36,898 bases of DNA from Mycobacterium sp. UM_WGJ (GTDB taxonomy: Bacteria > Actinomycetota > Actinomycetes > Mycobacteriales > Mycobacteriaceae). Under the pieces are notes generated by a model. The model did not search any database. It was given only the letters and a program-made list of their open reading frames with translations, and was not told the origin of the DNA. A program made the translations under genes and the position numbers. The DNA lies in assembly GCF_000455125.1 (NCBI RefSeq), contig NZ_AUWR01000058.1, forward strand, positions 1 to 36,898. The letters are read 5' to 3'. This document shows, piece after piece, positions 22,323 through 30,610 of the stretch; position 1 is the first letter of the stretch; each line of letters starts with the position of its first letter.

Positions 22323-22363
22323 TGGAGCCGATGACGGGAATCGAACCCGCGTATTCAGCTTGG
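22323..22363. repeat. attL: 41-bp core repeat
   Basis: Identical over 41 bases to 30537-30577. It is a partial tRNA-Gly 3' segment (CCA end through the T arm to the anticodon stem, read on the minus strand); the sequence diverges immediately after TTGG, so the left copy no longer encodes a full tRNA. Confidence 0.95.
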
Positions 22364-22814
22364 AGCCGAAGCGTCTGTCGCAGTGCGCTGAGATTCGTTA
22401 AGGTGTTGCCGCTCAGTGGGATTCGTTGGAAATAGGTCTGTGTGGATACAGGCGAGTATGCGGCGTGTCGCGGACGTTTATCCGGGGAAAATACGGAGTA
22501 GCAGCAAACGGGCTGCGCTGGAACTACTGCGGACGCACTGCGGACGGCGGGGCCGTGCGACGCCTACTCCGTCGCCTTCATCTCGACGTAGACCTGGATC
22601 ATCTGCGGAGCCACGTCATCAACTCTGCATACCCATGCATGACTTGCGAAAAAAAAAGACCGCTCCCTCTATTAACGCCAATGGAGTGGCGCTTGACCCT
22701 GCGGCCGGGGTCACTCCCCCACCCATCTCCGCAGGTCAGAGCGTTATCGCGTGGCTCGCGGCCGGCTGGCGATGCGTCGACCGACCGTCCTGGCCGCATA
22801 GTTATGCATGAGTG
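22364..22814. other. left terminal region of the element without a convincing gene
   Basis: About 450 bp. Several long plus-strand frames are open here but they start on weak codons, lack ribosome-binding sites and have non-coding-like composition. It contains two copies of GATTCGTT (near 22391 and 22422), an arm-type repeat (22483-22496), an A9 run near 22649-22657, and on the minus strand a short tail reading DDVAPQMIQVYVEMKATE before a stop at 22564-22566, which looks like the C-terminus of a lost or very small protein. This is the region where an attachment arm and any leftover packaging sequence would lie. Confidence 0.5.
22483..22496 (+). repeat. candidate integrase arm-type site (left)
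   Basis: CGGGGAAAATACGG matches CGGGGAAAATGCGG at 30467-30480 in 13 of 14 bases, in the same orientation. The two copies flank the att cores at 119 and 56 bp, as arm-binding sites of tyrosine integrases do. Confidence 0.5.
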
Positions 22815-22853
22815 CGGCCCGGCGCCCTGGCTGACGGACAGGGCGCCGGGCCG
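22815..22853 (-). terminator. strong terminator hairpin of the element operon
   Basis: CGGCCCGGCGCCCTG (22815-22829) and CAGGGCGCCGGGCCG (22839-22853) form a perfect 15-bp stem with a 9-base loop, downstream of the capsid gene on the minus strand. The stability of the stem suggests efficient termination even without a U-tract. Confidence 0.8.
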
Positions 22854-22881
22854 ACTTCCGCCACAACCCCTACAGCCCTCA

Positions 22882-22996
22882 CTAGCCGGGGGTCGGCGTC
22901 ACCGGCTCGGTCGAGGAGTTGGGCGACCAGCTGGTGGTGATTGAGGTCCGGCCGGCGGGCGGTATCGGCGTGAACTTCCGACGGCCGGACCGGTCC
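22882..22996 (-). other. start-less coding-like frame after the capsid gene
   Basis: Directly after the capsid stop the +1 frame stays open to a TAG at 22882-22884 and reads KDRSGRRKFTPIPPAG, then RTSITTSWSPNSSTEPV and a PTPG end. Nearly every third codon position is G or C, as in real genes of this genome. I find no ATG, GTG or TTG start in this frame, and it is open back into the capsid gene. It may be a frameshift-dependent capsid extension or a small gene that lost its start. Confidence 0.3.
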
Positions 22997-23851
22997 TTAG
23001 CTGCCGCCGTCGTCGCTGGCGATGGTGAACTTGCCGACGCGCTCGGGCCGTACCAGGTTCCAGCCGATGCGCCACGTCGCCCTCACGGCAACCGAGTCGG
23101 AGTCGAAGTACCGGTCGTACGAGTTGGCGATCCGCACCTGGCCGACCGCGGCCGCGATGGCGTTGCGGTCGATCACCAGACCGGAGTACGGGGTGACGTG
23201 GCGGTTGACGATGACCGGGATGCCGAGCAGCCGGGGCTGCGCGTCGTCGGTGCCGGCTCCGAGCAGGCTGGCGCTGAAGTCGGTGCCAAGCTTTAGCTTG
23301 CGCAGTTCCGACCAGCCCTTGGGATCGAGCACGATGGCACTCGGGTTGGCCAAGTTGCCCTGCAACTCGGCGATCAGGTCGGCCAGGACATCGAGGTCGG
23401 TCGCCAGTTCGCCGCCGTCCACGGTGCCGGCCAGGTTGAGTAGGCCGGCCGGCGGGGTGACCGCCGGACTGACCGGCGCGGCCTGGCTGATGAATGCTTG
23501 GTCAGCCTTGTAGACGATGCTGCGGGCGACGCTGGTGGCCAGCTCGCGCGCGGTGCCTTCCTGGCTGAACTGCTCGTCGGTCACCTTCACCAGTTGCGAA
23601 ATCTTGCCGGTGTGGACAACGACCTCGGACAGGTCCGGCGGGTTGTCGGAGATGGTGTCACCTTCACCGACGAACGTGGCGGCGGCATCGTCGATGTAGG
23701 CGACGCGCACTGCGGGCTGGTCACCCTGGACGGCGCCGACAACGTTGGCACACTGCAGGACTAAAGCGTTCGGGACGACATCAGCCGGCGCGAACGCTTG
23801 TACATCTGGCCGCCACGGATACGCGGCGGTGGTGGTGTCGATGGTTGCCAT
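22997..23851 (-). CDS. phage major capsid protein, HK97 fold family
   Basis: A 284-residue protein with the layout of Siphoviridae-type HK97 capsids: N-terminal arm, VGEGDTISDNPPDLSEVVVHTGKISQLVKVTDEQFSQ (the E-loop/P-domain strand segment, seen in pieces), an A-domain with AIVLDPKGWSELRKL and LLGIPVIVNRHV, and a C-terminal strand region ending VGKFTIASDDG. There is no fused protease and no long delta domain; the separate scaffold gene just upstream fills that role. ATG 23851 has a strong AGGAGGTAA ribosome-binding site, and a long hairpin separates it from the scaffold gene, so it is probably highly translated. No portal or protease gene accompanies it. Confidence 0.85.
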   Translation of the reverse strand: MATIDTTTAAYPWRPDVQAFAPADVVPNALVLQCANVVGAVQGDQPAVRVAYIDDAAATFVGEGDTISDNPPDLSEVVVHTGKISQLVKVTDEQFSQEGTARELATSVARSIVYKADQAFISQAAPVSPAVTPPAGLLNLAGTVDGGELATDLDVLADLIAELQGNLANPSAIVLDPKGWSELRKLKLGTDFSASLLGAGTDDAQPRLLGIPVIVNRHVTPYSGLVIDRNAIAAAVGQVRIANSYDRYFDSDSVAVRATWRIGWNLVRPERVGKFTIASDDGGS

Positions 23852-23875
23852 CGAGTTACCTCCTGGGGAAACGGG

Positions 23876-23932
23876 TGCGGCCCGGAAGCGCGCACATCAT
23901 CAAAGTGAGTGATGGCGCGGCTCCGGGCCGCA
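23876..23932 (-). promoter_or_regulatory. long hairpin between scaffold and capsid genes
   Basis: TGCGGCCCGGA (23876-23886) pairs perfectly with TCCGGGCCGCA (23922-23932); inside it GCGC/GCGC and CATCA/TGATG continue the stem after small bulges, giving a nearly complete 57-base hairpin. It begins 24 bp upstream of the capsid ATG, on the leader of that gene. It may terminate, attenuate, protect or process the mRNA; no U-tract follows. Confidence 0.6.
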
Positions 23933-23971
23933 TCCGATTCGCTCCGCTCCGGGCGAAGGCTTAGAGGGATT

Positions 23972-24478
23972 CTACCTCTCAGGGGGCGCGAATGCCGATT
24001 GCCAGCGATTCGGTGTGGATTGCGGTGCGCCGGTTCCGCTGGTCAGTCCACCCCGCGACAGAAGGGGCTGCGGGCGGCCGGTGACGCCGAGCTCCTGGCG
24101 GGCGCGGGTCACCGCGGCGTTGACCTTCTCGGCGTCTACAGTGCCGTCGTCGGCGATCAGGTCGGCCAGTTCCGTCACCGCGAACACTGCTGCCGGTTTC
24201 ACCCCGGCGGCGTCGATGAGCCGTTCGGCGTGCTGCTGCTGTAGTGCGGCGACCGCGGCCTCGGCGGTAGTGGCGCGCTCGCGGTATCCGGCAGATTCCC
24301 GGCGGAGCTTTTCCACGTAGCTGCGGGAAAACTCTTGCGCGTCATCGGCGGTCGGTTCTGCCGCGTCGGTGTCATCCGCCGGGTCCGGCGCCTGCTCGGC
24401 GGACTCAGGTTCGGGCTGAACCTCGGTCGTCGGGGTGTCGGCCACCTCGGTTTCGGTGGCGGCTTCGGTGTCACTCAT
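23972..24478 (-). CDS. phage scaffold-like protein
   Basis: A 168-residue acidic protein. Residues 1-48 are disordered, rich in Glu, Asp, Thr and Pro. Residues 49-95 form a coiled-coil helix (EFSRSYVEKLRRESAGYRERATTAEAAVAALQQQHAE, in two segments). The C-terminal third has an ELADLIADDGTVD segment and a basic tail. This composition and the position just before the capsid gene fit actinobacteriophage capsid scaffolds. ATG 24478 overlaps the previous stop by 8 bp (ATGAGTGA) and has AAGGAG upstream. Confidence 0.72.
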   Translation of the reverse strand: MSDTEAATETEVADTPTTEVQPEPESAEQAPDPADDTDAAEPTADDAQEFSRSYVEKLRRESAGYRERATTAEAAVAALQQQHAERLIDAAGVKPAAVFAVTELADLIADDGTVDAEKVNAAVTRARQELGVTGRPQPLLSRGGLTSGTGAPQSTPNRWQSAFAPPER

Positions 24479-24737
24479 TCGAGATTTCTCCTTCAGTTCG
24501 CGCTACGCCATCGCGCAGCGTTTGGACAATTTGGTGGGGGCCGGTCTCGGTGAGTTCGCCGATGCGGCGGGCGAATACCTCGGTGACGCTGAGCAGTTGC
24601 CTTAGCAGCACACCGGCGTTGTCGGTGTAGTTGCCGACGATCAGCTGCGCGGCCGGATTGTCTCCGGACAGCGCTGCATCGACCAGGGCTAGCGCGTCTC
24701 GGGCGGCGTCGATTTCCTCGGCGGCTTCGGGATTCAA
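24471..24737 (-). CDS. small helical protein of the satellite operon
   Basis: An 88-residue predicted all-helical protein: AAEEIDAARDALALVDAAL, then AGVLLRQLLSVTEVFARRIGELTE. The likely start is TTG at 24737-24735, which overlaps the WhiB-like gene's TGA as TTGA and has AAGGAAGGA upstream; no ATG or GTG is available near it. Function unknown. Position between the regulator and scaffold suggests a morphogenesis or regulatory role; this is inference. Confidence 0.65.
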   Translation of the reverse strand: MNPEAAEEIDAARDALALVDAALSGDNPAAQLIVGNYTDNAGVLLRQLLSVTEVFARRIGELTETGPHQIVQTLRDGVARTEGEISNE

Positions 24738-25153
24738 GATGCTGACCGTCCTTCCTTGGTGGGGGTGGTGATGATTCCGGCGACGACACCGGGTGGTCGT
24801 TTTCGGGCGGGCAGATCGGCGTACCACTGCTGGCAGGACGCCAACGCTGGGCAGACCCTGCACAAGCCGATGGCCTGCTGGTGACGCTGCTCGGCTACTT
24901 CGGGCGGTTCATCAACGCCGCGTTCATCAAAGAGATGTGATCGGTTGCGGCACCGGGCACCGGGCAACGAGGGGGCGCCGGCCAGCACGGCGGCCAGCAC
25001 CTCGACAACCGGGTCACCGGAGGTGTCTGGGCGGACGCGGGGCGCCTGGGGGCGGTCCCTATGCCACCGCTGGCCGTAATGCGGGCCGCACATACCCACC
25101 GCACGCACCGGGCGGCCACAATCGGCGACAGAGCAGACAGGGCGGGCGCTCAC
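24734..25153 (-). CDS. WhiB-like protein with N-terminal Cys/His zinc-type domain
   Basis: A 139-residue fusion. Residues 7-25 hold Cys7, Cys12, Cys22 and His25 (C-x4-C-x9-C-x2-H), a zinc-ribbon-like cluster common in phage proteins. Residues 64-126 hold a WhiB core: Cys68, then Cys98-x2-Cys101-x5-Cys107, and a GVVAG turn (122-126) in place of the usual GVWGG. WhiB proteins bind a 4Fe-4S cluster and regulate transcription through the principal sigma factor. Mycobacteriophage TM4 encodes a WhiB-like protein (gp49) that interferes with host WhiB2 and excludes superinfection, so a role in host or helper control is plausible. The GTG start overlaps the upstream stop as GTGA. Confidence 0.75.
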   Translation of the reverse strand: MSARPVCSVADCGRPVRAVGMCGPHYGQRWHRDRPQAPRVRPDTSGDPVVEVLAAVLAGAPSLPGARCRNRSHLFDERGVDEPPEVAEQRHQQAIGLCRVCPALASCQQWYADLPARKRPPGVVAGIITTPTKEGRSAS

Positions 25154-25374
25154 GATGCCTCCTTCGGTCGGCGTGGCTCGGAGTAATCAACCGCCGTTGT
25201 GATGCTGGTGGTTGGCGCGAGATCGGCGGCGGCGACCCTGCCGACGCACGGCACCCGCGAGATGCGACCGTCCGGCTTGGTGCAGGGGTTGCCGGCTTCG
25301 GCTCCGCAGTGCGGGCAAGGGATGGTTGCTGCGCCCGTGTCTCGGTAGGCGGCCAGGATCACTCGACCCTTCAC
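25150..25374 (-). CDS. small zinc-finger-type phage protein
   Basis: A 74-residue protein with Cys20, Cys23, Cys31 and Cys43 in IPCPHCGAEAGNPC and RVPC, resembling phage small zinc-binding proteins that usually carry C-x2-C then C and H. Start GTG 25374 overlaps the ATPase stop (GTGA). It is likely nucleic-acid binding, with unknown target. Confidence 0.65.
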   Translation of the reverse strand: MKGRVILAAYRDTGAATIPCPHCGAEAGNPCTKPDGRISRVPCVGRVAAADLAPTTSITTAVDYSEPRRPKEAS

Positions 25375-26915
25375 GAGGTGGCCTCTTCTGCGATGATCGA
25401 CCAGGTGGCGCTGCGGCCATCTGACGCGATCACGCTGATATCGGAATTGGCCGACGCTGCGGCCCGCAACGAGTTAATCGAGTAGCCCGCCGCCTGCCCT
25501 GCTTCATACACAGCAAACGAATTGGCGGTGGTGTGGCCGGCTTCCTGTAGGTCCGCAACGTGGTTCGCGAGCCACTTGGTTGCGGGCAGCTTCGGCCGCT
25601 CGGGTTCGTGCGACCTGCGGGAATCCAGATTCGTGACAGCGTGGTTGGCGCCCTTCGCGCGGGGGGAATCTGCCAACCTGCCATCCTTGCCATCCTGGGG
25701 GTGGATGGCAGGGACAACGTGCAGGTCAGGGGCTGGATGGCAGGATGGCAAGCTTCCCGTTGTCTGGGTGTCATTCTGGTTGCCATTCGGCGGTACGAAC
25801 GGCAACAATTTCCAGTAGTACGGGCCACTGCCGCCGTCGCGGAACGGCCTGCCGATCCGGCAGCGCTTGGCTAACTCTTCACGGGCGCGACGGGTCTGGT
25901 CGGCGCTGTATCCGGCTTCGGCCATCTGGGCGACCGCATCATCCTTGGTCACCGCCAGCAGGGCGCCATTGGGTCCAGTCAGGATCTGCACCAGCATGGC
26001 GGCCTTGTCGCTCATCGGCTTGTCTCCTGGGCCTGCTGGCGGGCCACCTGACGCCGCTTCACGTAGCGCGTCAGAAACGGTCCGGTCGGTCTCCTCACCG
26101 AGCACGAATCGACTCACGGTCGCCGTCTTACCGCTGTCGGTGGTCACCTCTACCGGCTCCAGCGAGTACGTGTAAGACAGTGACTCGGGGCCGATGCTGC
26201 TCTTGGCGTGTGACATCAGCCGGGTGCCGTCGTCGGCGTTGTCGTCCTTGGCGAATCCGAAGATGGAGCGGGCGACCTCTCCGAACGCGCTGGAGCCGTT
26301 CAGGGCGGCCACCACGTCACCGGTGAAGGACTTCTTCAGGTGCGCGATGCCGATCACGACGCCATCGATGGCCTCGGCGAGCTTCACCCACGGCTCCAGT
26401 CGTGCCCGGACCTCGTTCGACCGGTTCACATCAGTCCGTGATCCGACCGCGGACATCAGCGGGTCGAGCACCACCACTTTGATGCCCGCCGAGTTGAACT
26501 CACTGGCGAGACCGTCCATGTCGAGGTGGTACAGGATCGGCACCACCGTGGCGCCGTCGTCATCGTGGTGGTGAATCTCAACTTCGGGGATCACTACCTT
26601 GTCCAGGTCTGCGCCGGCAGCCCGTAAGCCTGGCTTCATCATGTAGATCTCGGACTCCTCGGTCCCGATCCAGGCCGCACCGACGGGCATCCCTCGCCAG
26701 GCACCGGGGAGTGTGCCCTTGGTTGCCTCGGCGACAAACCACCGTGCGGAGGTGGACTTGCCCGCTGCTGGCCGGCCGCCGAAGATGACCAAGGTTCCGA
26801 CGGCGATACCGGGGTATCCGGGCTTCGGTTCCCACGCCAACGTCGGAACGTCGTCTTTCACGTTGGACATGGGGCGCAGGTTGATTCGTCTCTGCCGAAT
26901 CTCTTCTGCTGTCAA
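25371..26915 (-). CDS. RepA-like AAA ATPase (replicative helicase type)
   Basis: 514 residues from TTG 26915, which has AAAGGAGG six bases upstream and overlaps the primase TGA as TTGA; an internal ATG at 26870 has no ribosome-binding site. The RecA-type ATPase domain has Walker A GGRPAAGKST (46-55) and Walker B VVVLD (147-151), then a GIAHLKKS sensor-like segment; this is the AAA_25/RepA type. Two winged-helix-like regions follow (about 300-365 and 440-514) separated by a Pro/His/Gly/Asp linker (about 385-420). The linker DNA holds an array of six octamer repeats that looks like a replication origin. It probably works with the adjacent primase-polymerase for autonomous element replication. 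Confidence 0.82.
   Translation of the reverse strand: MTAEEIRQRRINLRPMSNVKDDVPTLAWEPKPGYPGIAVGTLVIFGGRPAAGKSTSARWFVAEATKGTLPGAWRGMPVGAAWIGTEESEIYMMKPGLRAAGADLDKVVIPEVEIHHHDDDGATVVPILYHLDMDGLASEFNSAGIKVVVLDPLMSAVGSRTDVNRSNEVRARLEPWVKLAEAIDGVVIGIAHLKKSFTGDVVAALNGSSAFGEVARSIFGFAKDDNADDGTRLMSHAKSSIGPESLSYTYSLEPVEVTTDSGKTATVSRFVLGEETDRTVSDALREAASGGPPAGPGDKPMSDKAAMLVQILTGPNGALLAVTKDDAVAQMAEAGYSADQTRRAREELAKRCRIGRPFRDGGSGPYYWKLLPFVPPNGNQNDTQTTGSLPSCHPAPDLHVVPAIHPQDGKDGRLADSPRAKGANHAVTNLDSRRSHEPERPKLPATKWLANHVADLQEAGHTTANSFAVYEAGQAAGYSINSLRAAASANSDISVIASDGRSATWSIIAEEATS
25671..25750. repeat. candidate replication origin: six 8-bp iterons in opposed triplets
   Basis: Octamer TGCCATCC occurs at 25671-25678 (one mismatch, TGCCAACC), 25679-25686 and 25688-25695 on the plus strand. 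Its reverse complement GGATGGCA occurs at 25703-25710, 25735-25742 and 25743-25750. Three sites point each way within 80 bp, inside the disordered-linker part of the helicase gene. Confidence 0.55.
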
Positions 26916-27628
26916 GATGCCCTCCTTTGGGCGCTCTGAATGGTCTGCGAGATCTCGTGTGCGCTCAAGCCGATCTGGTGGCCGGCCGCTGCGAGCGCGG
27001 AATAGACCGCGGCCGGCGCGCTGTCGGCTGCAGCTCGCGCCGCTGCCCAGAACAAGGCCGCATTGCGACCGCCTGGCTGCGCCTCTTGCACCGTGCGGAT
27101 TAGGCCGTCCCAGCGGTCCCCGGATGAGCTTCCGGGTGCAGCTGGTGGTGACCATGCCGGTTGGACGATCAGTGTTGTCAGGTGGTCGGGCACCTGGGCT
27201 ATCTCGGCATCGCAGTGCAACCGGTACGGCTTCCCGGTGCCAGGGTGGATGCTGCCGGGTGCGACCGTGTAGCCCTTCCCGCCGCACTTGATGTCGATAC
27301 CGGGAATGCCGTCGACCTTGCCGCGCGCCGAGCCCGACATCCGGTAGTAAAAGTGCCAACCGCCACTCCCGGTATGCACGCACAAGGTGCGGTGTTCCGG
27401 GCGTAACTTCAAGGCGCTGACGGAACCGCCGTTGCGCGGGTCGACATCGAGGACGATCACGCCGGGTTGCGTTGCGCCCCAATTACAGCCGGGGTGCCGT
27501 TCAGTCCATCGTGCGATGACGGCAGGGTCTCGGGTGAAGTCGTTGACCCCGTGCGCGGTGAGCGGGATCTTGCCGTCAAGCGGGCCGACAGAGAATCCGC
27601 GGTCGAGCATGATGTCCAAGTCAGTCAC
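26912..27628 (-). CDS. bifunctional primase-polymerase (PrimPol) domain protein
   Basis: 238 residues. The archaeo-eukaryotic PrimPol fold is marked by DVD (Asp61, Asp63 in VLDVDPRNGG), the GSGGWHFYY histidine (His92) and a third acidic site in GIDIKCGGKGYTVAPGS (Asp112). The C-terminal 60 residues are Ala-rich helical. Such proteins prime element replication together with a helicase; here the ATPase gene follows with a 4-bp overlap. Start GTG 27628 overlaps the upstream DUF6011 stop by 8 bp. Confidence 0.86.
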   Translation of the reverse strand: MTDLDIMLDRGFSVGPLDGKIPLTAHGVNDFTRDPAVIARWTERHPGCNWGATQPGVIVLDVDPRNGGSVSALKLRPEHRTLCVHTGSGGWHFYYRMSGSARGKVDGIPGIDIKCGGKGYTVAPGSIHPGTGKPYRLHCDAEIAQVPDHLTTLIVQPAWSPPAAPGSSSGDRWDGLIRTVQEAQPGGRNAALFWAAARAAADSAPAAVYSALAAAGHQIGLSAHEISQTIQSAQRRAS

Positions 27629-27797
27629 CGGCTGCCTCCAATTGGGCGCAGCGGGCAGAGATTCCGGCCATCACTGACCTCGGGCTGGTCAACCACGCGC
27701 CGCAGCGGCGGCAGGGGACGGCGACACGCCAATCGGGCAGTTCGGTGGGGATACCGGCCCGAAGGCCGGCCCCCTCCACGCTGTTCATCGCGGCCAT
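27621..27797 (-). CDS. DUF6011-like small zinc protein
   Basis: 58 residues. ATG 27797 overlaps the upstream TGA as TGATG. The C-terminal half reads PCRRCGAWLTSPRSVMAGIS then ARC, with Cys29, Cys32 and Cys50, matching the phage DUF6011 pattern C-x2-C-G ... S-V-x-x-G-I-x-x-x-C. Probably a small zinc-binding protein of the replication module; function unknown. Its end overlaps the primase start by 8 bp. Confidence 0.7.
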   Translation of the reverse strand: MAAMNSVEGAGLRAGIPTELPDWRVAVPCRRCGAWLTSPRSVMAGISARCAQLEAAGD

Positions 27798-28240
27798 CAG
27801 GAACCGGCCCCGGCGATCTGGGCCAGCAGCTTCACCGCCAGCTCGTCGGCCGTGGCCTGTAGAGCTGCGGCCTGCTCGCTAGCCTCCCGGAGAGCTGCGG
27901 CCAGCGCCACCGCCTGAGACGGTAGTGCCCCGTTTCCGACCCCGGCGACCGGCGAGATGAGATAGACGCACGTCACCTCGCTGCCATCGTTCGCGACGTA
28001 CTGATGGCCGGTGACGCGTGCCCCCAGCCAATTCCGACCAGGCAGGGCCGGGAAGAACTCGCCGGCGAACTCTCGGAACGTGTAGGTGTGGTCCGCAGTG
28101 TCTGACCAGTCGCCGACCACGAGGGCGCCAGGTGGGGCGGGCACGGTGGCCAGGCGGGCGCACTCCTGGCTGTGCAGGCCGTGATCAACGTCGTCGGCCG
28201 GATCTGCCAACACGTACTCGATGGGGTTGTCTACACTCAC
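27797..28240 (-). CDS. unrecognised satellite protein, 147 residues
   Basis: GTG 28240 is preceded by AGGAG at 8 bases spacing. The central part reads GDWSDTADHTYTFREFAGEFFPALPG followed by a beta-rich stretch (ARVTGHQYVANDG, VTCVYLISPVAG), and the C-terminal 45 residues form an Ala-rich amphipathic helix. No domain recognised. It begins 2 bp after the stop of the 52-residue gene, so it belongs to the same operon. Confidence 0.68.
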   Translation of the reverse strand: MSVDNPIEYVLADPADDVDHGLHSQECARLATVPAPPGALVVGDWSDTADHTYTFREFAGEFFPALPGRNWLGARVTGHQYVANDGSEVTCVYLISPVAGVGNGALPSQAVALAAALREASEQAAALQATADELAVKLLAQIAGAGS

Positions 28241-28242
28241 GG

Positions 28243-28401
28243 TTAGGACTCCTGTTCTTGCATGGGTGGGTTGTTCTGCAAGCCCTCGGCGGTGTTCCAG
28301 CACCGACCGGGGGCATTTCTCTTGGTGAACCGAAGATCTTCGGTCCTGTCGTTCTCGACCAGGCCCAAGTCGGCGTGGTCGATCTGTGGGAGATGCCGCA
28401 T
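28243..28401 (-). CDS. small satellite protein, 52 residues, coupled to excisionase
   Basis: ATG 28401 overlaps the excisionase TGA as TGATG. The protein is hydrophilic: DHADLGLVENDRTEDLRFTK, then RNAPGRCWNTAEGLQNN. No domain recognised. The start overlap and the AGGAG of the next gene immediately beyond its end support it as genuine. Confidence 0.6.
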   Translation of the reverse strand: MRHLPQIDHADLGLVENDRTEDLRFTKRNAPGRCWNTAEGLQNNPPMQEQES

Positions 28402-28583
28402 CAAGCCGCGTCTCCGCCGGTCTTCCGTTCCAGGCGCTGGACGAACTCGTCGATCTGCTTGTCGGTGCTGAACCGGCGCTTGCCGATCTTCACCGAGCCC
28501 AGCTCGCCCGAATACCAGAGCCCGAACACAGTGGATCTGCTGATCCCGCCGAGCCTGTCGCTCGTCGCCTGCCAGTCGTTCAC
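28401..28583 (-). CDS. xis: excisionase-like winged-helix protein
   Basis: 60 residues from GTG 28583 with GGAAGG upstream. Sequence layout DRLGGISRSTVFGLWYSGEL and SVKIGKRRFSTDKQIDEFVQ is the HTH_17/MerR-like excisionase pattern: a recognition helix followed by a wing and Arg-rich strand. It would bend att DNA and direct the integrase to excision, and could also repress. It is the first gene of the minus-strand operon and is divergent from the repressor. Confidence 0.78.
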   Translation of the reverse strand: MNDWQATSDRLGGISRSTVFGLWYSGELGSVKIGKRRFSTDKQIDEFVQRLERKTGGDAA

Positions 28584-28613
28584 TCTGACCCATCCTTCCG
28601 TTTTGTGTGTGGT

Positions 28614-28639
28614 AGACGCGTATGAGCGTGTCTGCGTCT
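28614..28639. promoter_or_regulatory. candidate operator between excisionase and repressor
   Basis: AGACGC (28614-28619) and GCGTCT (28634-28639) are perfect inverted arms; an overlapping inner dyad AGACGCG / CGTGTCT (28614-28633) matches at 6 of 7 positions. The site sits in the 106-bp divergent spacer, 31 bp upstream of the excisionase start and 51 bp upstream of the repressor start, where an immunity repressor would bind. Confidence 0.5.
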
Positions 28640-28689
28640 GTTTCTAACATGCGTTGAGTTTCAGCGCAAGAGGGGGCATTCTGTGTTTC

Positions 28690-29265
28690 GTGGACAAATG
28701 GGAGTTCGAACAGGCTCACCGTGTGGGTCGCGAAGTTCAGCGGCTCCGGAAGCTCGCGAAGTTAACGGCGCAGCAGCTTGCGGACGAGACGGAACGGTGG
28801 GGGCTGAAGATGACGCGGCAGTCGATCTCCGACCTTGAGAATGGCCGCCGCAGGTACGTCACAACTGCTGAGTTGGCAGTTCTCTCGGCCGCGCTGTTTA
28901 CCCCGCCGGTGGCCCTTATGTTCCCAGGACCATATGACGAGGAGATCGAAGTTCTACCAACACTACAATCGTCGCAATTCGATGCAGCGCAATGGTTTTC
29001 AGGACTGAGCAACGAGACGTTCGGTGTGGAGTCGGATGAGCTGAAGACCGCGAGAAGGCTCGTCGCTAGAGATACGGAGTCCATCCGGCAGCAGGCGGAG
29101 TTCATCCGGCAGCAGGCGGAGTCCGCCCAAGCGGAGGCGGCGGCCACGCGAGAAATCGCCCTTCGGGCGCTCGAAAAGTTGGACGAGCTCCGGCAGCGAG
29201 TTGATGCAGCAGAAGCTCGGGCCCGAATTGTGGATGAGTATCCAAGGACTGCCGACGGTGCCTAG
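28690..29265 (+). CDS. XRE-family immunity repressor-like protein
   Basis: 191 residues from GTG 28690 (AGAGGGGG 14-21 bases upstream; a TTG at 28654 would add 12 residues). The HTH domain spans about 8-70: VQRLRKLAKLTAQQLADETE and MTRQSISDLENGRR. The C-terminal 80 residues are a charged coiled coil with an internal repeat SIRQQAEFIRQQAES, which likely serves oligomerisation. No LexA-like peptidase motif is visible, so derepression may depend on a protein from a helper phage rather than on RecA. The 3' end overlaps the integrase start by 8 bp. Confidence 0.78.
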   Translation: MDKWEFEQAHRVGREVQRLRKLAKLTAQQLADETERWGLKMTRQSISDLENGRRRYVTTAELAVLSAALFTPPVALMFPGPYDEEIEVLPTLQSSQFDAAQWFSGLSNETFGVESDELKTARRLVARDTESIRQQAEFIRQQAESAQAEAAATREIALRALEKLDELRQRVDAAEARARIVDEYPRTADGA

Positions 29266-30457
29266 GCAACGAATGGCTCCGGGCGAGCACGGGAAGATTG
29301 CCGAGCGTGTCGTCACGGAGAACCTGCCTGGCGGTAAGAAGCAAGAGATCTTCTACGCCACAACGTATTTGCGACTCCACAGTGGGAAGCTGCGCGAGCG
29401 TGAGGCGTCGTCCAGGAAGTCCGCCGAAGATGCCCGACGCGAGCTTAAGCGCCGCATCGCTGTGGAACTGGAAGCGGGAGAGCCAACAGGTGTAATCAAC
29501 CGTCGCACGACACTGTCGGAGCTATTCGAGGCATGGCTGCCGGCGAAGATCGCCGAGGACCGCATCGGGGAGCGCACCGAGACCATCTACCGGGATACCT
29601 GGCGGCTGCACGGTGATCAGCAGCTGGGCGCACTTCGGATCGCGGAGCTTACGACGAGCCGCGCCGATGCCCACCTGAAGGCGTTGCCGTCTTCGTCGGC
29701 TATCTACATGCGCATCATCCTGTCTGGCATGTACAGCCTGGCGGCCCGGTTCGACGTGGTGAAGCACAATCCGATCCGCGAGACCAAGACTGCCAAGCTG
29801 GAACGCAAGCCAGCGCGTGCCCTCACCGGGATCGAGCTGGAGCAGGTGCGTCGGGCCGTTGAGGTGTGGTGCGGGCGGAAGGGTCCGGGGCCACGGCGTG
29901 GGCTGATGCTGCCGGCGTTCGTGGAGCTGCTCGCGGCGACGGGCGTGCGGCCGGGGGAGGTGCTGGCAATCCGCTGGGATGAGGTCGACCTACTCGGCAC
30001 GCCACCAACCGTCACCGTCACTGGGACTGTGCAAGACGCGGGGCGTGTGGCCGGCAAACCACTGCACCGGCAGGACGGCCGCAAGGGTGGCGCGCCGCCG
30101 CACACGGTGACTCTGCCGAAGTTCGGTGCCCAGGTGCTCGCTGACCTCTATGCGCTCACGGGGCCGGATGGAACGGTTCTGAAGAACCGGGACGGCGGCC
30201 TGGTAAGCCTGTCGAACATCCGTTCATCGCTGCGGGAAGCGCTCGCGCCGCACGAGGAGCTGAGGTGGGTGACACCGCACAGCTTCCGGAGGTCGGTGGC
30301 CACGGTCGTCAGGGACGGGCTCGGCGTCGAGGCGGCCCAGCAGCAGCTCTCGCACGCCCAACTGGCGACCACCGAAGGGCACTACGTCCAGCGGATCACG
30401 GCAGGGCCGGATACCCGCGCCGTATTAGAGGAGTGGGCCAGCAACGGGAACGGCTGA
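29258..30457 (+). CDS. int: tyrosine site-specific integrase
   Basis: 399 residues from GTG 29258, which has AAGGA about 10 bases upstream; ATG 29234 or ATG 29273 are alternatives. An arm-binding N-terminal domain (about 1-80) and a core-binding domain (about 82-185, TLSELFEAWLPAKIAEDRIG) precede the catalytic domain: Arg231 (TGVRPGEVL), His341 and Arg344 (HSFRR), His366 (LSHAQL) and nucleophile Tyr376 (EGHYVQ). It lies 80 bp from the right core repeat, as expected for integration into a tRNA 3' end. It is translationally coupled to the repressor gene. Confidence 0.92.
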   Translation: MPRQRMAPGEHGKIAERVVTENLPGGKKQEIFYATTYLRLHSGKLREREASSRKSAEDARRELKRRIAVELEAGEPTGVINRRTTLSELFEAWLPAKIAEDRIGERTETIYRDTWRLHGDQQLGALRIAELTTSRADAHLKALPSSSAIYMRIILSGMYSLAARFDVVKHNPIRETKTAKLERKPARALTGIELEQVRRAVEVWCGRKGPGPRRGLMLPAFVELLAATGVRPGEVLAIRWDEVDLLGTPPTVTVTGTVQDAGRVAGKPLHRQDGRKGGAPPHTVTLPKFGAQVLADLYALTGPDGTVLKNRDGGLVSLSNIRSSLREALAPHEELRWVTPHSFRRSVATVVRDGLGVEAAQQQLSHAQLATTEGHYVQRITAGPDTRAVLEEWASNGNG

Positions 30458-30464
30458 CCCAATT

Positions 30465-30490
30465 TGCGGGGAAAATGCGGGATTTTGCGG
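30465..30490 (+). repeat. candidate integrase/excisionase binding sites (right arm)
   Basis: TGCGG occurs at 30465, 30476 and 30486, about one helical turn apart. The 14-bp CGGGGAAAATGCGG (30467-30480) matches the left arm site 22483-22496 at 13 of 14 bases. Confidence 0.5.
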
Positions 30491-30536
30491 ATGTGAGTTT
30501 GCCAGCAAACTTCAAAAATGCCCTGACCTGCATGTA

Positions 30537-30577
30537 TGGAGCCGATGACGGGAATCGAACCCGCGTATTCAGCTTGG
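30537..30577. repeat. attR: 41-bp core repeat within tRNA-Gly
   Basis: Identical to 22323-22363. It covers the CCA end, acceptor 3' strand, T arm and most of the anticodon arm of the tRNA-Gly on the minus strand. Integration here restores a complete tRNA gene. Confidence 0.95.
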
Positions 30578-30610
30578 GAAGCTGATGTTCTGCCATTGAA
30601 CTACATCGGC
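30537..30610 (-). tRNA. tRNA-Gly (anticodon TCC)
   Basis: Read on the minus strand: acceptor GCCGATG (30610-30604) pairs with CATCGGC; D arm AGTTCAATGGCAGAAC-type sequence; anticodon stem CAGCT/AGCTG enclosing TTCCCAA with anticodon TCC; T arm CGGGTTCGATTCCCG; discriminator T and an encoded CCA (30539-30537). All four arms fold. This is the intact copy regenerated by the element's integration. Confidence 0.93.

What the first reader, a model, noticed from the sequence alone, without database searches (positions are those of the whole stretch)
22323..30577. Minimal capsid-encoding phage satellite in a mycobacterium-type chromosome
Seen: an 8.2-kb unit between perfect 41-bp tRNA repeats, with integrase, excisionase, repressor, primase-polymerase, helicase-type ATPase, scaffold and major capsid, and a closing terminator. 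Missing: portal, terminase, prohead protease, tail and lysis genes. Known: PICI-type satellites keep integration, regulation and replication genes and borrow helper functions; capsid-forming ones bring capsid genes; phiRv1 and phiRv2 of M. tuberculosis are similar-sized elements with capsid plus protease and terminase-like genes. Inference: this element makes its own (perhaps smaller) shell and takes portal, packaging motor and tail from a helper phage. The intact, tightly overlapped operon argues against random prophage decay.
Basis: partly seen in the sequence, partly recalled or inferred. Interest (0 to 1): 0.87.

Follow-up and report, generated by a model that had tools for sequence, protein, structure and literature searches.

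The report
Tiny capsid-making mycobacterial phage satellite
An 8.2-kb virus-like passenger in a mycobacterial chromosome seems to build its own small protein shell but to borrow the packaging motor and tail of a helper virus; relatives with the same plan occur in many actinobacteria.

Summary
In detail: an intact 8,214-bp element lies between perfect 41-bp copies of the 3' end of tRNA-Gly; a relative has the empty site. It encodes integrase, repressor, replication genes, scaffold and an HK97-fold capsid protein, and no recognisable portal, terminase, protease, tail or lysis gene. The capsid lineage recurs in 47 same-genus loci (45 intact genes) and in other actinobacterial families; none of the 47 elements shows a portal or large terminase. 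Capsid dN/dS is 0.05-0.34 (9 pairs) and 38 of 40 att-delimited elements are 7.9-10.1 kb, so this is a maintained satellite lineage, not prophage wreckage. Twelve deposited 10.9-11.1-kb Mycolicibacterium phage genomes carry a related scaffold and capsid; one of them shares 24 bp at its ends with phage Herbertwm. After its capsid gene the window carries a 13-bp motif that lies 59 bp from the ends of phages Tortellini and Xavia, its closest integrase relatives. Best reading: a cos-type satellite that makes its own small shell and borrows portal, motor, tail and lysis; untested by experiment. Integrase-plus-capsid candidates in Mycobacterium were published in 2023, so: new variant of a known kind.

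The parts
22323..22363 (.). att repeat, far end of the element
   Evidence: 41/41 identity with 30537-30577
22524..22546 (-). short repeat-bearing noncoding stretch, possible integrase arm sites
   Evidence: 23-24-nt matches in L060 and L051; role is inference
22714..22748 (-). putative packaging (cos-type) site; 13-mer core at 22741-22729
   Evidence: same 13-mer 59 bp from the right ends of phages Tortellini and Xavia and at 36-48 of phi673, before its small-terminase gene; exact in 3 loci (window included), all after the capsid gene, 0 elsewhere in 1.2 Mb
22815..22853 (-). hairpin closing the operon (15-bp perfect stem)
   Evidence: z -5.2, 0 of 200 shuffles fold as well
22997..23851 (-). 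major capsid protein, 284 aa, HK97 fold
   Evidence: PF05065; AlphaFold pLDDT 87, pTM 0.82; Foldseek to HK97-fold capsids
23972..24478 (-). scaffold-like protein, 168 aa
   Evidence: phrog_12880 5.8e-5; family profile in 71 of 83 loci; family members match the protein annotated 'scaffolding protein' in some OR387110-121 records
24471..24761 (-). small protein (about 90 aa), unknown
   Evidence: no family hit; 78% identical match in L041
24734..25153 (-). WhiB-like protein, 139 aa
   Evidence: PF02467 E 0.0014, below cut-off; matches in many related loci
25150..25374 (-). phage zinc-finger protein, 74 aa
   Evidence: PF24623 1.8e-9
25371..26870 (-). AAA_25 helicase-type ATPase (start codon chosen by eye)
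   Evidence: PF13481 9.7e-15; phrog_10729 2.2e-75
26912..27628 (-). primase-polymerase, 238 aa
   Evidence: PF09250 9.6e-26
27621..27797 (-). DUF6011-like small protein
   Evidence: PF19474 1.4e-4, below cut-off
27797..28303 (-). unknown protein, up to 168 aa
   Evidence: ORF; partial matches in L041 and L060
28401..28583 (-). excisionase-like HTH protein, 60 aa
   Evidence: HTH_17 E 0.023, below cut-off; cluster in 10 loci
28690..29265 (+). XRE-type repressor
   Evidence: HTH_3 1.6e-6
29201..30457 (+). tyrosine integrase (longest ORF; true start probably near 29273, by eye)
   Evidence: PF00589 2.1e-10; 67.5% DNA identity to the Tortellini integrase gene
30537..30577 (.). att repeat inside tRNA-Gly
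30537..30610 (-). tRNA-Gly(CCC), integration target

Best explanation
The element is an integrative phage satellite. Shown here: it sits at tRNA-Gly, has an intact regulation, replication, scaffold and capsid gene set, and belongs to a lineage spread over actinobacteria in whose elements no portal or large terminase was found and which keeps to about 9 kb. Inferred: when a temperate helper enters or is induced, the element excises, replicates with its own primase-polymerase and ATPase, and assembles small shells from its own scaffold and capsid protein, possibly T=3 or smaller. The helper supplies portal, terminase, tail and lysis. The helper's terminase recognises a site after the capsid gene that resembles the end region of Tortellini/Xavia-type phages, so the element needs no terminase of its own.
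For: att repeats and tRNA; empty site in G022; recurring order in 47 same-genus loci and in other families; no portal or TerL in the 47 elements by three portal and two TerL families and local profiles, and none found in those of 26 further genomes or records by phrog_2 and phrog_12; 70-row capsid group, split support 100/98, without TerL; sizes 9,019 +/- 835 bp in 40 loci; capsid dN/dS 0.05-0.34 in 9 pairs of relatives; 12 deposited 10.9-11.1-kb records with related capsid and scaffold, WillG annotated without TerL or portal; JSGardenL2 and Herbertwm share 24 bp at their ends; window 13-mer at the ends of Tortellini, Xavia and phi673 and after the capsid gene in L038 and L090.
Against: No induction, particle or helper data. 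The own genome shows no recognisable prophage (no portal hit; one weak phrog_2 hit, 8.1e-7, in a 729-aa ORF), so no resident helper is seen. The window lacks the TerS, adaptor, stopper and tape measure annotated in WillG. A helper portal would have to fit a capsid with no clear phage relative by tblastn (best E 0.2). The 13-mer was found starting from the window, so only L038 and L090 are independent satellite cases; most of the family lacks it, and with two mismatches allowed the enrichment nearly vanishes (18 sites after the capsid gene against 80 elsewhere, density ratio 1.3). The Larva and Herbertwm ends lack it.
Confidence: 0.68

Rival explanations
1. A satellite packaged in helper capsids, its capsid protein and scaffold serving to poison or downsize helper heads by mixing, not to form a pure shell.
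For: P4 and SaPIs redirect helper capsid assembly with scaffolding proteins (PMC10690885 passages); the portal is not encoded, so helper head parts must be involved.
Against: It encodes a whole capsid protein and a scaffold, both kept in the family; the window capsid has no clear phage relative by tblastn, so co-assembly with a helper capsid protein is not expected; the size is narrow at about 9 kb.
Confidence: 0.13
2. A decayed prophage that lost portal, terminase, tail and lysis genes.
For: Integrase and primase/ATPase genes resemble those of temperate mycobacteriophages; decay does occur in the family: 2 of 47 loci hold only a broken capsid gene.
Against: The same gene plan without portal or TerL recurs in many genera; 45 of 47 frames intact; purifying selection among relatives; tight size; no phage record in the collection carries this capsid at E 1e-5.
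Confidence: 0.06
3. A domesticated or defence island whose capsid protein forms a non-packaging shell (encapsulin-like) or interferes with phages.
For: HK97 fold shared with encapsulins, which appear lower in the Foldseek list; single defence-type hits among ORFs in or beside some loci.
Against: Best structural matches are phage capsids; scaffold gene, att sites, Xis-like gene, replication genes and the phage-end motif indicate a packaged mobile element; related genomes were deposited as phages.
Confidence: 0.06

Closest known systems
Candidate Mycobacterium PICIs of Abad et al. 2023 (PMC10654092; abstract and passages read)
   Same: Integrase plus capsid islands, some at tRNA genes, some with replication, scaffold or terminase genes; the phiRv elements are counted among them.
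   Different: The passages I read do not separate a portal- and TerL-less lineage, its roughly 9-kb size, its spread beyond mycobacteria, or a packaging-site match. Whether this window's element is in their data set was not checked (supplements not available).
Mycolicibacterium aichiense phages WillG, JSGardenL2 and ten others (OR387110-OR387121)
   Same: Related scaffold and capsid (WillG capsid about 24-35% to the members of the window's lineage that BLAST detects), 10.9-11.1 kb; in WillG and JSGardenL2 integrase is present and no TerL, portal or protease is annotated.
   Different: WillG has serine integrase, TerS, adaptor, stopper and tape measure protein, which the window lacks; the JSGardenL2 ends match Herbertwm, not the Tortellini type. 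No paper on them was found.
Capsid-forming PICIs (definition from PMC10690885 passages)
   Same: Own capsid gene; tail expected from the helper.
   Different: cf-PICIs also encode portal, protease, connectors, TerL, TerS and HNH; absent here.
SaPI/P4-type satellites (as described in PMC10690885 passages)
   Same: Satellite with its own replication genes; some are packaged at cos sites by the helper terminase.
   Different: Those redirect helper capsid protein; here a full capsid protein is encoded.
Streptomyces MulchRoom/MiniFlayer satellites (PMC10690885 passages)
   Same: Actinobacterial satellites with own capsid protein and scaffold.
   Different: They encode portal and both terminase subunits, lack obvious replication genes, are 14.8-17.4 kb and have virulent helpers.

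Membership tests
Candidate mycobacterial PICI (Abad et al. [quoted passage not shown]
   definition from a Methods passage
Capsid-forming PICI | portal protein | tested here: not met
   PF04860, PF05133, phrog_12: no hit in the own genome
Capsid-forming PICI | large terminase subunit | tested here: not met
   PF03354 no hit; phrog_2 one weak hit on another contig
Capsid-forming PICI | head maturation protease, TerS, connectors | tested here: not met
   no such assignment among the element's proteins; the scaffold has a weak E 0.037 hit to a protease family
Capsid-forming PICI | major capsid protein | tested here: met
Phage satellite in general | integration and replication functions with an incomplete virion gene set | tested here: met
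Phage satellite in general | transfer depends on a helper phage | not testable with these tools
   needs induction or superinfection
M. aichiense satellite type (WillG) | homologous scaffold-capsid pair without TerL and portal | tested here: met
   the window proteins themselves give no direct hit to these records, the link runs through family members
M. aichiense satellite type (WillG) | TerS, adaptor, stopper, tape measure | tested here: not met
   none found in the window element
   no phiRv record was compared
Encapsulin | HK97-fold shell protein outside a mobile phage element | tested here: not met
   phage capsid family hit and mobile-element context; definition recalled

The most novel reading that the evidence does not exclude
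A class-wide lineage of roughly 9-kb satellites in which scaffold and capsid are the only virion genes common to most members forms the smallest DNA-filled HK97-type capsids known (T=3 or below), each fitted with a foreign helper's portal, motor and tail through a stolen packaging site. [quoted passage not shown]
Probability: 0.34. Interest if true: 0.82.

Novelty: new variant of a known kind. Interest (0 to 1): 0.65.

Why it matters
It points to a widespread class of satellites that may divide virion building in an unusual way: shell from the parasite, portal and motor from the helper. It gives concrete predictions (a shell for about 9 kb, a placed packaging site, named helper-type phages) and bears on why T=3 and smaller tailed-phage capsids seem missing (Luque et al. 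2020, PMC7762592, passages read: T=3 predicted to hold about 11.8 kb, 95% range 8.1-17.1 kb; the smallest genome among their 3,348 isolated tailed phages is 11.6 kb).

Tried and rejected
Single-protein scan of IMG/VR with the window capsid found nothing; an alignment query found 2 contigs. The 46-row capsid alignment was too diverse for the genome scan, so a 12-row alignment was used. PF04860 and phrog_12 proved poor probes for satellite portals (the portal of L084 is PF05133), so PF05133 was added for the 47 genomes; it was not run on the 26 further ones, where only phrog_12 and local profiles within the fetched loci speak. In one search the integrase query was read in the wrong frame; statements on integrases rest. 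L075 and L077 first looked like possible prophages because tail families appeared in the pooled scan; with wider flanks both are lone capsid remnants among ordinary genes. The tail-type hits I traced come from L043, L044 and L046; two other pooled Pfam hits (VG15, Sipho_Gp37) were not traced. The pooled scans show only 25 of 78 Pfam and 25 of 109 PHROG families. The Herbertwm end sequence is not found in the family above shuffled controls (best 18 of 24 matches in 25 loci; ten shuffled versions 17-19). The 13-mer in IMG/VR gives a mixed result: at the 2-kb limit set beforehand, 20 of 28 loci with a terminase-like ORF against 15.5 expected, not decisive; within 800 nt upstream, a limit chosen after seeing the distances, 12 of 28 against 2.6 expected. 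Reading cluster c7 as a small-terminase relative rests on one profile comparison (probability 85); Pfam and PHROGs do not support it. Rows dropped: about ten short partial capsid matches (for example in G271, G093, G272, G236:C86, G202) and all but 7 weak-group matches were not fetched; one search drew 297 genomes from a larger genus and does not list its lowest matches. L115, L122 and L127 had no capsid ORF in the main cluster, and L118, L129 and L130 are short or fragmentary; L126 was not held for the TerL search. Of the 47 strong loci, 10 are cut by contig ends to under 19 kb, and L054 ends 0.6 kb after its capsid gene.
Full report
Observation. The 41-bp repeats at 22323-22363 and 30537-30577 are identical and 8,214 bp apart. 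The right copy is the 3' part of tRNA-Gly(CCC), 30537-30610 on the minus strand. The window is a whole contig of a 4.47-Mb draft genome. In G022 of the same genus the left flank (85% over 603 bp) and right flank (91% over 1,477 bp) meet, overlapping by 41 bp, at an uninterrupted tRNA-Gly with the same anticodon; the element has only chance-level matches in that stretch. G022 has no capsid match.

Genes. On the minus strand, in transcription order: excisionase-like protein, unknown, DUF6011-like, primase-polymerase, AAA ATPase, zinc finger, WhiB-like, unknown small protein, scaffold, capsid; on the plus strand repressor and tyrosine integrase. Some labels are weak: scaffold by PHROG only at 5.8e-5; excisionase, WhiB and DUF6011 below cut-off. 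The capsid model has pLDDT 87 and pTM 0.82; its best PDB matches are HK97-fold phage capsids (first E 2e-14), with SaPI1 and encapsulins further down. A hairpin with a 15-bp perfect stem follows the capsid gene (z -5.2) without a T-run.

Not a relic of one prophage. The capsid protein matches 120 of 297 same-genus genomes, own included, at E <= 1e-3. I fetched 47 loci with strong matches (36-56% identity, L031-L077) and 7 weaker ones (L078-L084). In the strong set 45 of 47 loci hold an intact capsid frame; L075 and L077 hold broken remnants. The order integrase, Xis, replication gene, scaffold, capsid recurs, while integrase and replication modules are exchanged. A scan of GTDB genomes gave 40 loci, 18 of them outside Mycobacteriaceae, including Rhodococcus, Leucobacter, Xylanimicrobium, Microbacterium, Arthrobacter and Propionibacteriaceae. 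Of 69 loci counted in the window's lineage, 51 have a scaffold ORF in the main cluster, 63 an integrase within the fetched stretch, 46 both. A scaffold profile hits 71 of 83 loci; the capsid profile hits all 83, which is expected because it was built from them.

Missing genes. In 47 genomes (own and 46 others): portal PF04860 4 of 47, phrog_12 4 of 47, PF05133 16 of 47; TerL PF03354 16 of 47, phrog_2 42 of 47, many of these weak. None of the listed places lies inside a strong-set element. The nearest TerL is on G024:C122, about 8 kb from the strong capsid gene, and belongs to a neighbouring opposite-strand element with its own portal, scaffold and capsid. In 26 further genomes or records phrog_2 has 7 hits at E below 1e-9: 6 lie on contigs whose length differs from the capsid contig, the seventh is an IMG/VR copy of the same tandem. 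Local profiles of the satellite portal and TerL hit only L078, L084 and the tandem neighbour in L058/L130. Ten strong loci are cut by contig ends, so genes beyond could be missed.

Lineage. In a 79-row capsid tree the window lies in a 70-row group split from the 9 others (weak set and WillG) with support 100/98; the TerL-bearing loci (3) lie only among the 9, one of them on a very long branch. The root is by midpoint only. No phage record matches the window capsid at 1e-5 or the window scaffold at 0.01; at E <= 10 the best capsid hit is 0.2. As a control, the capsid of weak-set locus L084 finds 35 phage records with the same method.

Size. A direct repeat of at least 16 nt overlapping a tRNA gene and flanking the capsid gene was found in 44 of 79 loci; no other tRNA-overlapping repeat 3-18 kb apart appeared in the same loci. 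For the 40 of these in the window's lineage the size is 9,019 +/- 835 bp; 38 of 40 lie between 7.9 and 10.1 kb, the others being 7.0 and 12.3 kb; 11 non-mycobacterial ones average 8,241 bp. Uncut loci could have shown sizes up to about 18 kb. A constant length with exchanged modules is what a small shell would enforce (inference). Luque et al. (PMC7762592, passages) predict a mean of 11.78 kb for T=3 (95% range 8.1-17.1) and 8.94 kb for T about 2.49.

Selection. NG86 dN/dS, by my own script, is 0.05-0.34 for the capsid gene in 9 pairs of relatives and 0.14-0.59 for the scaffold in 6 pairs; the window itself has no relative close enough and is in none of them.

Packaged relatives. Twelve deposited Mycolicibacterium phage genomes of 10,866-11,078 bp (OR387110-OR387121; host M. 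aichiense) encode a capsid 40-41% identical to that of L084 and a scaffold 44-49% identical to that of L079. WillG is annotated with serine integrase, terminase (97 aa; phrog_1496 small subunit, 2.2e-18), adaptor, stopper, capsid and tape measure protein, but no large terminase, portal or protease. JSGardenL2 is 99.9% identical to WillG and annotated alike; Alyssa1 lists the same kinds over the part seen; the other nine annotations were not read. The WillG tape measure gene shares DNA (72%) with phage Herbertwm from the same host species. The JSGardenL2 record, read end to start, carries the same 24 bp as the ends of Herbertwm; the WillG record as deposited lacks these bases at its ends, and the ends of the other ten were not read. 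So a scaffold-plus-capsid satellite without large terminase or portal appears to be packaged through its helper's cos site (inference). I found no paper on them.

A packaging site in the window. The 633 bp between capsid stop and att (22364-22996), searched against all phages, gave among several hits of E 0.2 a match to the first 55 bp of Corynebacterium phage phi673, just before its small-terminase gene. The 13-mer inside it also lies 59 bp from the right ends of Tortellini and Xavia, the two phages whose integrase genes are closest to the window's (67% DNA identity). phi674 has 12 of 13; the ends of Larva and Herbertwm that I examined lack it. In the family it occurs exactly in 3 loci, window included, each after the capsid gene and on its strand, and nowhere in the other 1.2 Mb; an 11-nt core has 6 sites after the capsid gene and 7 elsewhere, against a mean of 0.25 and a maximum of 1 after the capsid gene for 40 shuffled 11-mers. 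Looser versions lose the contrast: 7 against 22 for the 10-mer, 18 against 80 with two mismatches (density ratios 1.8 and 1.3). So most members must use other sites. L090 has a serine and L038 a tyrosine integrase, which argues against an integrase arm site.

Variation. Some relatives add head or tail genes: an adaptor-type cluster in 8 of 69 loci and a possible small-terminase cluster in 11 of 69, a clear small terminase in L042, a minor tail protein in L043 and L046, a protease in L072, and in the sister group a tape measure protein in L081. The window is at the minimal end.

Known or new. Abad et al. 2023 (PMC10654092; abstract and passages) already proposed Mycobacterium PICIs defined by integrase plus capsid, some with scaffold or terminase, and counted the phiRv elements among them. 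cf-PICIs by definition carry portal, protease and terminase (PMC10690885 passages), so the window is not one, though it may work like one that encodes less. My literature searches showed no description of a portal- and TerL-less capsid lineage of about 9 kb in their listings; they cover open-licence PMC papers only, and the paper that describes SatelliteFinder was not held. On checking, I lowered the main confidence from 0.70 to 0.68 and the novel case from 0.35 to 0.34 because looser motif counts had been left out.

Noticed in passing
L058 (G024:C122:171750-191740) and L130: Two satellites lie side by side on opposite strands: one of the window's lineage without terminase, one with TerL, SPP1-type portal, scaffold and a distant capsid.
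   Followed up: partly
L099, 1898-2740 and 9944-10867: Two capsid genes of this superfamily within 9 kb in the Mycolicibacter sinensis E1572 record, possibly neighbouring satellites.
   Followed up: no
L043, L044, L046, L081, L157: Several satellites carry a single large tail-type gene after the capsid gene (minor tail protein, tape measure protein, or a 978-aa protein with weak NlpC/P60 and endolysin/tape-measure hits); in so small an element this may adjust the helper's tail.
   Followed up: partly
L072, 8454-9305 minus: A head maturation protease lies after, not before, the capsid gene.
   Followed up: no
L075 and L077: Broken capsid remnants alone among ordinary chromosomal genes: decayed members of the family.
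   Followed up: yes
window 22627-22641 and 22796-22810, minus strand: A 15-nt motif occurs twice (12 of 15 identical, by eye) on either side of the putative packaging site; possible protein-binding repeats.
   Followed up: no
ORFs of alignment A1 (L031-L077): Single hits to defence-type families (for example a TIR effector) among ORFs in or beside some elements; whether they lie inside the att sites was not checked.
   Followed up: no
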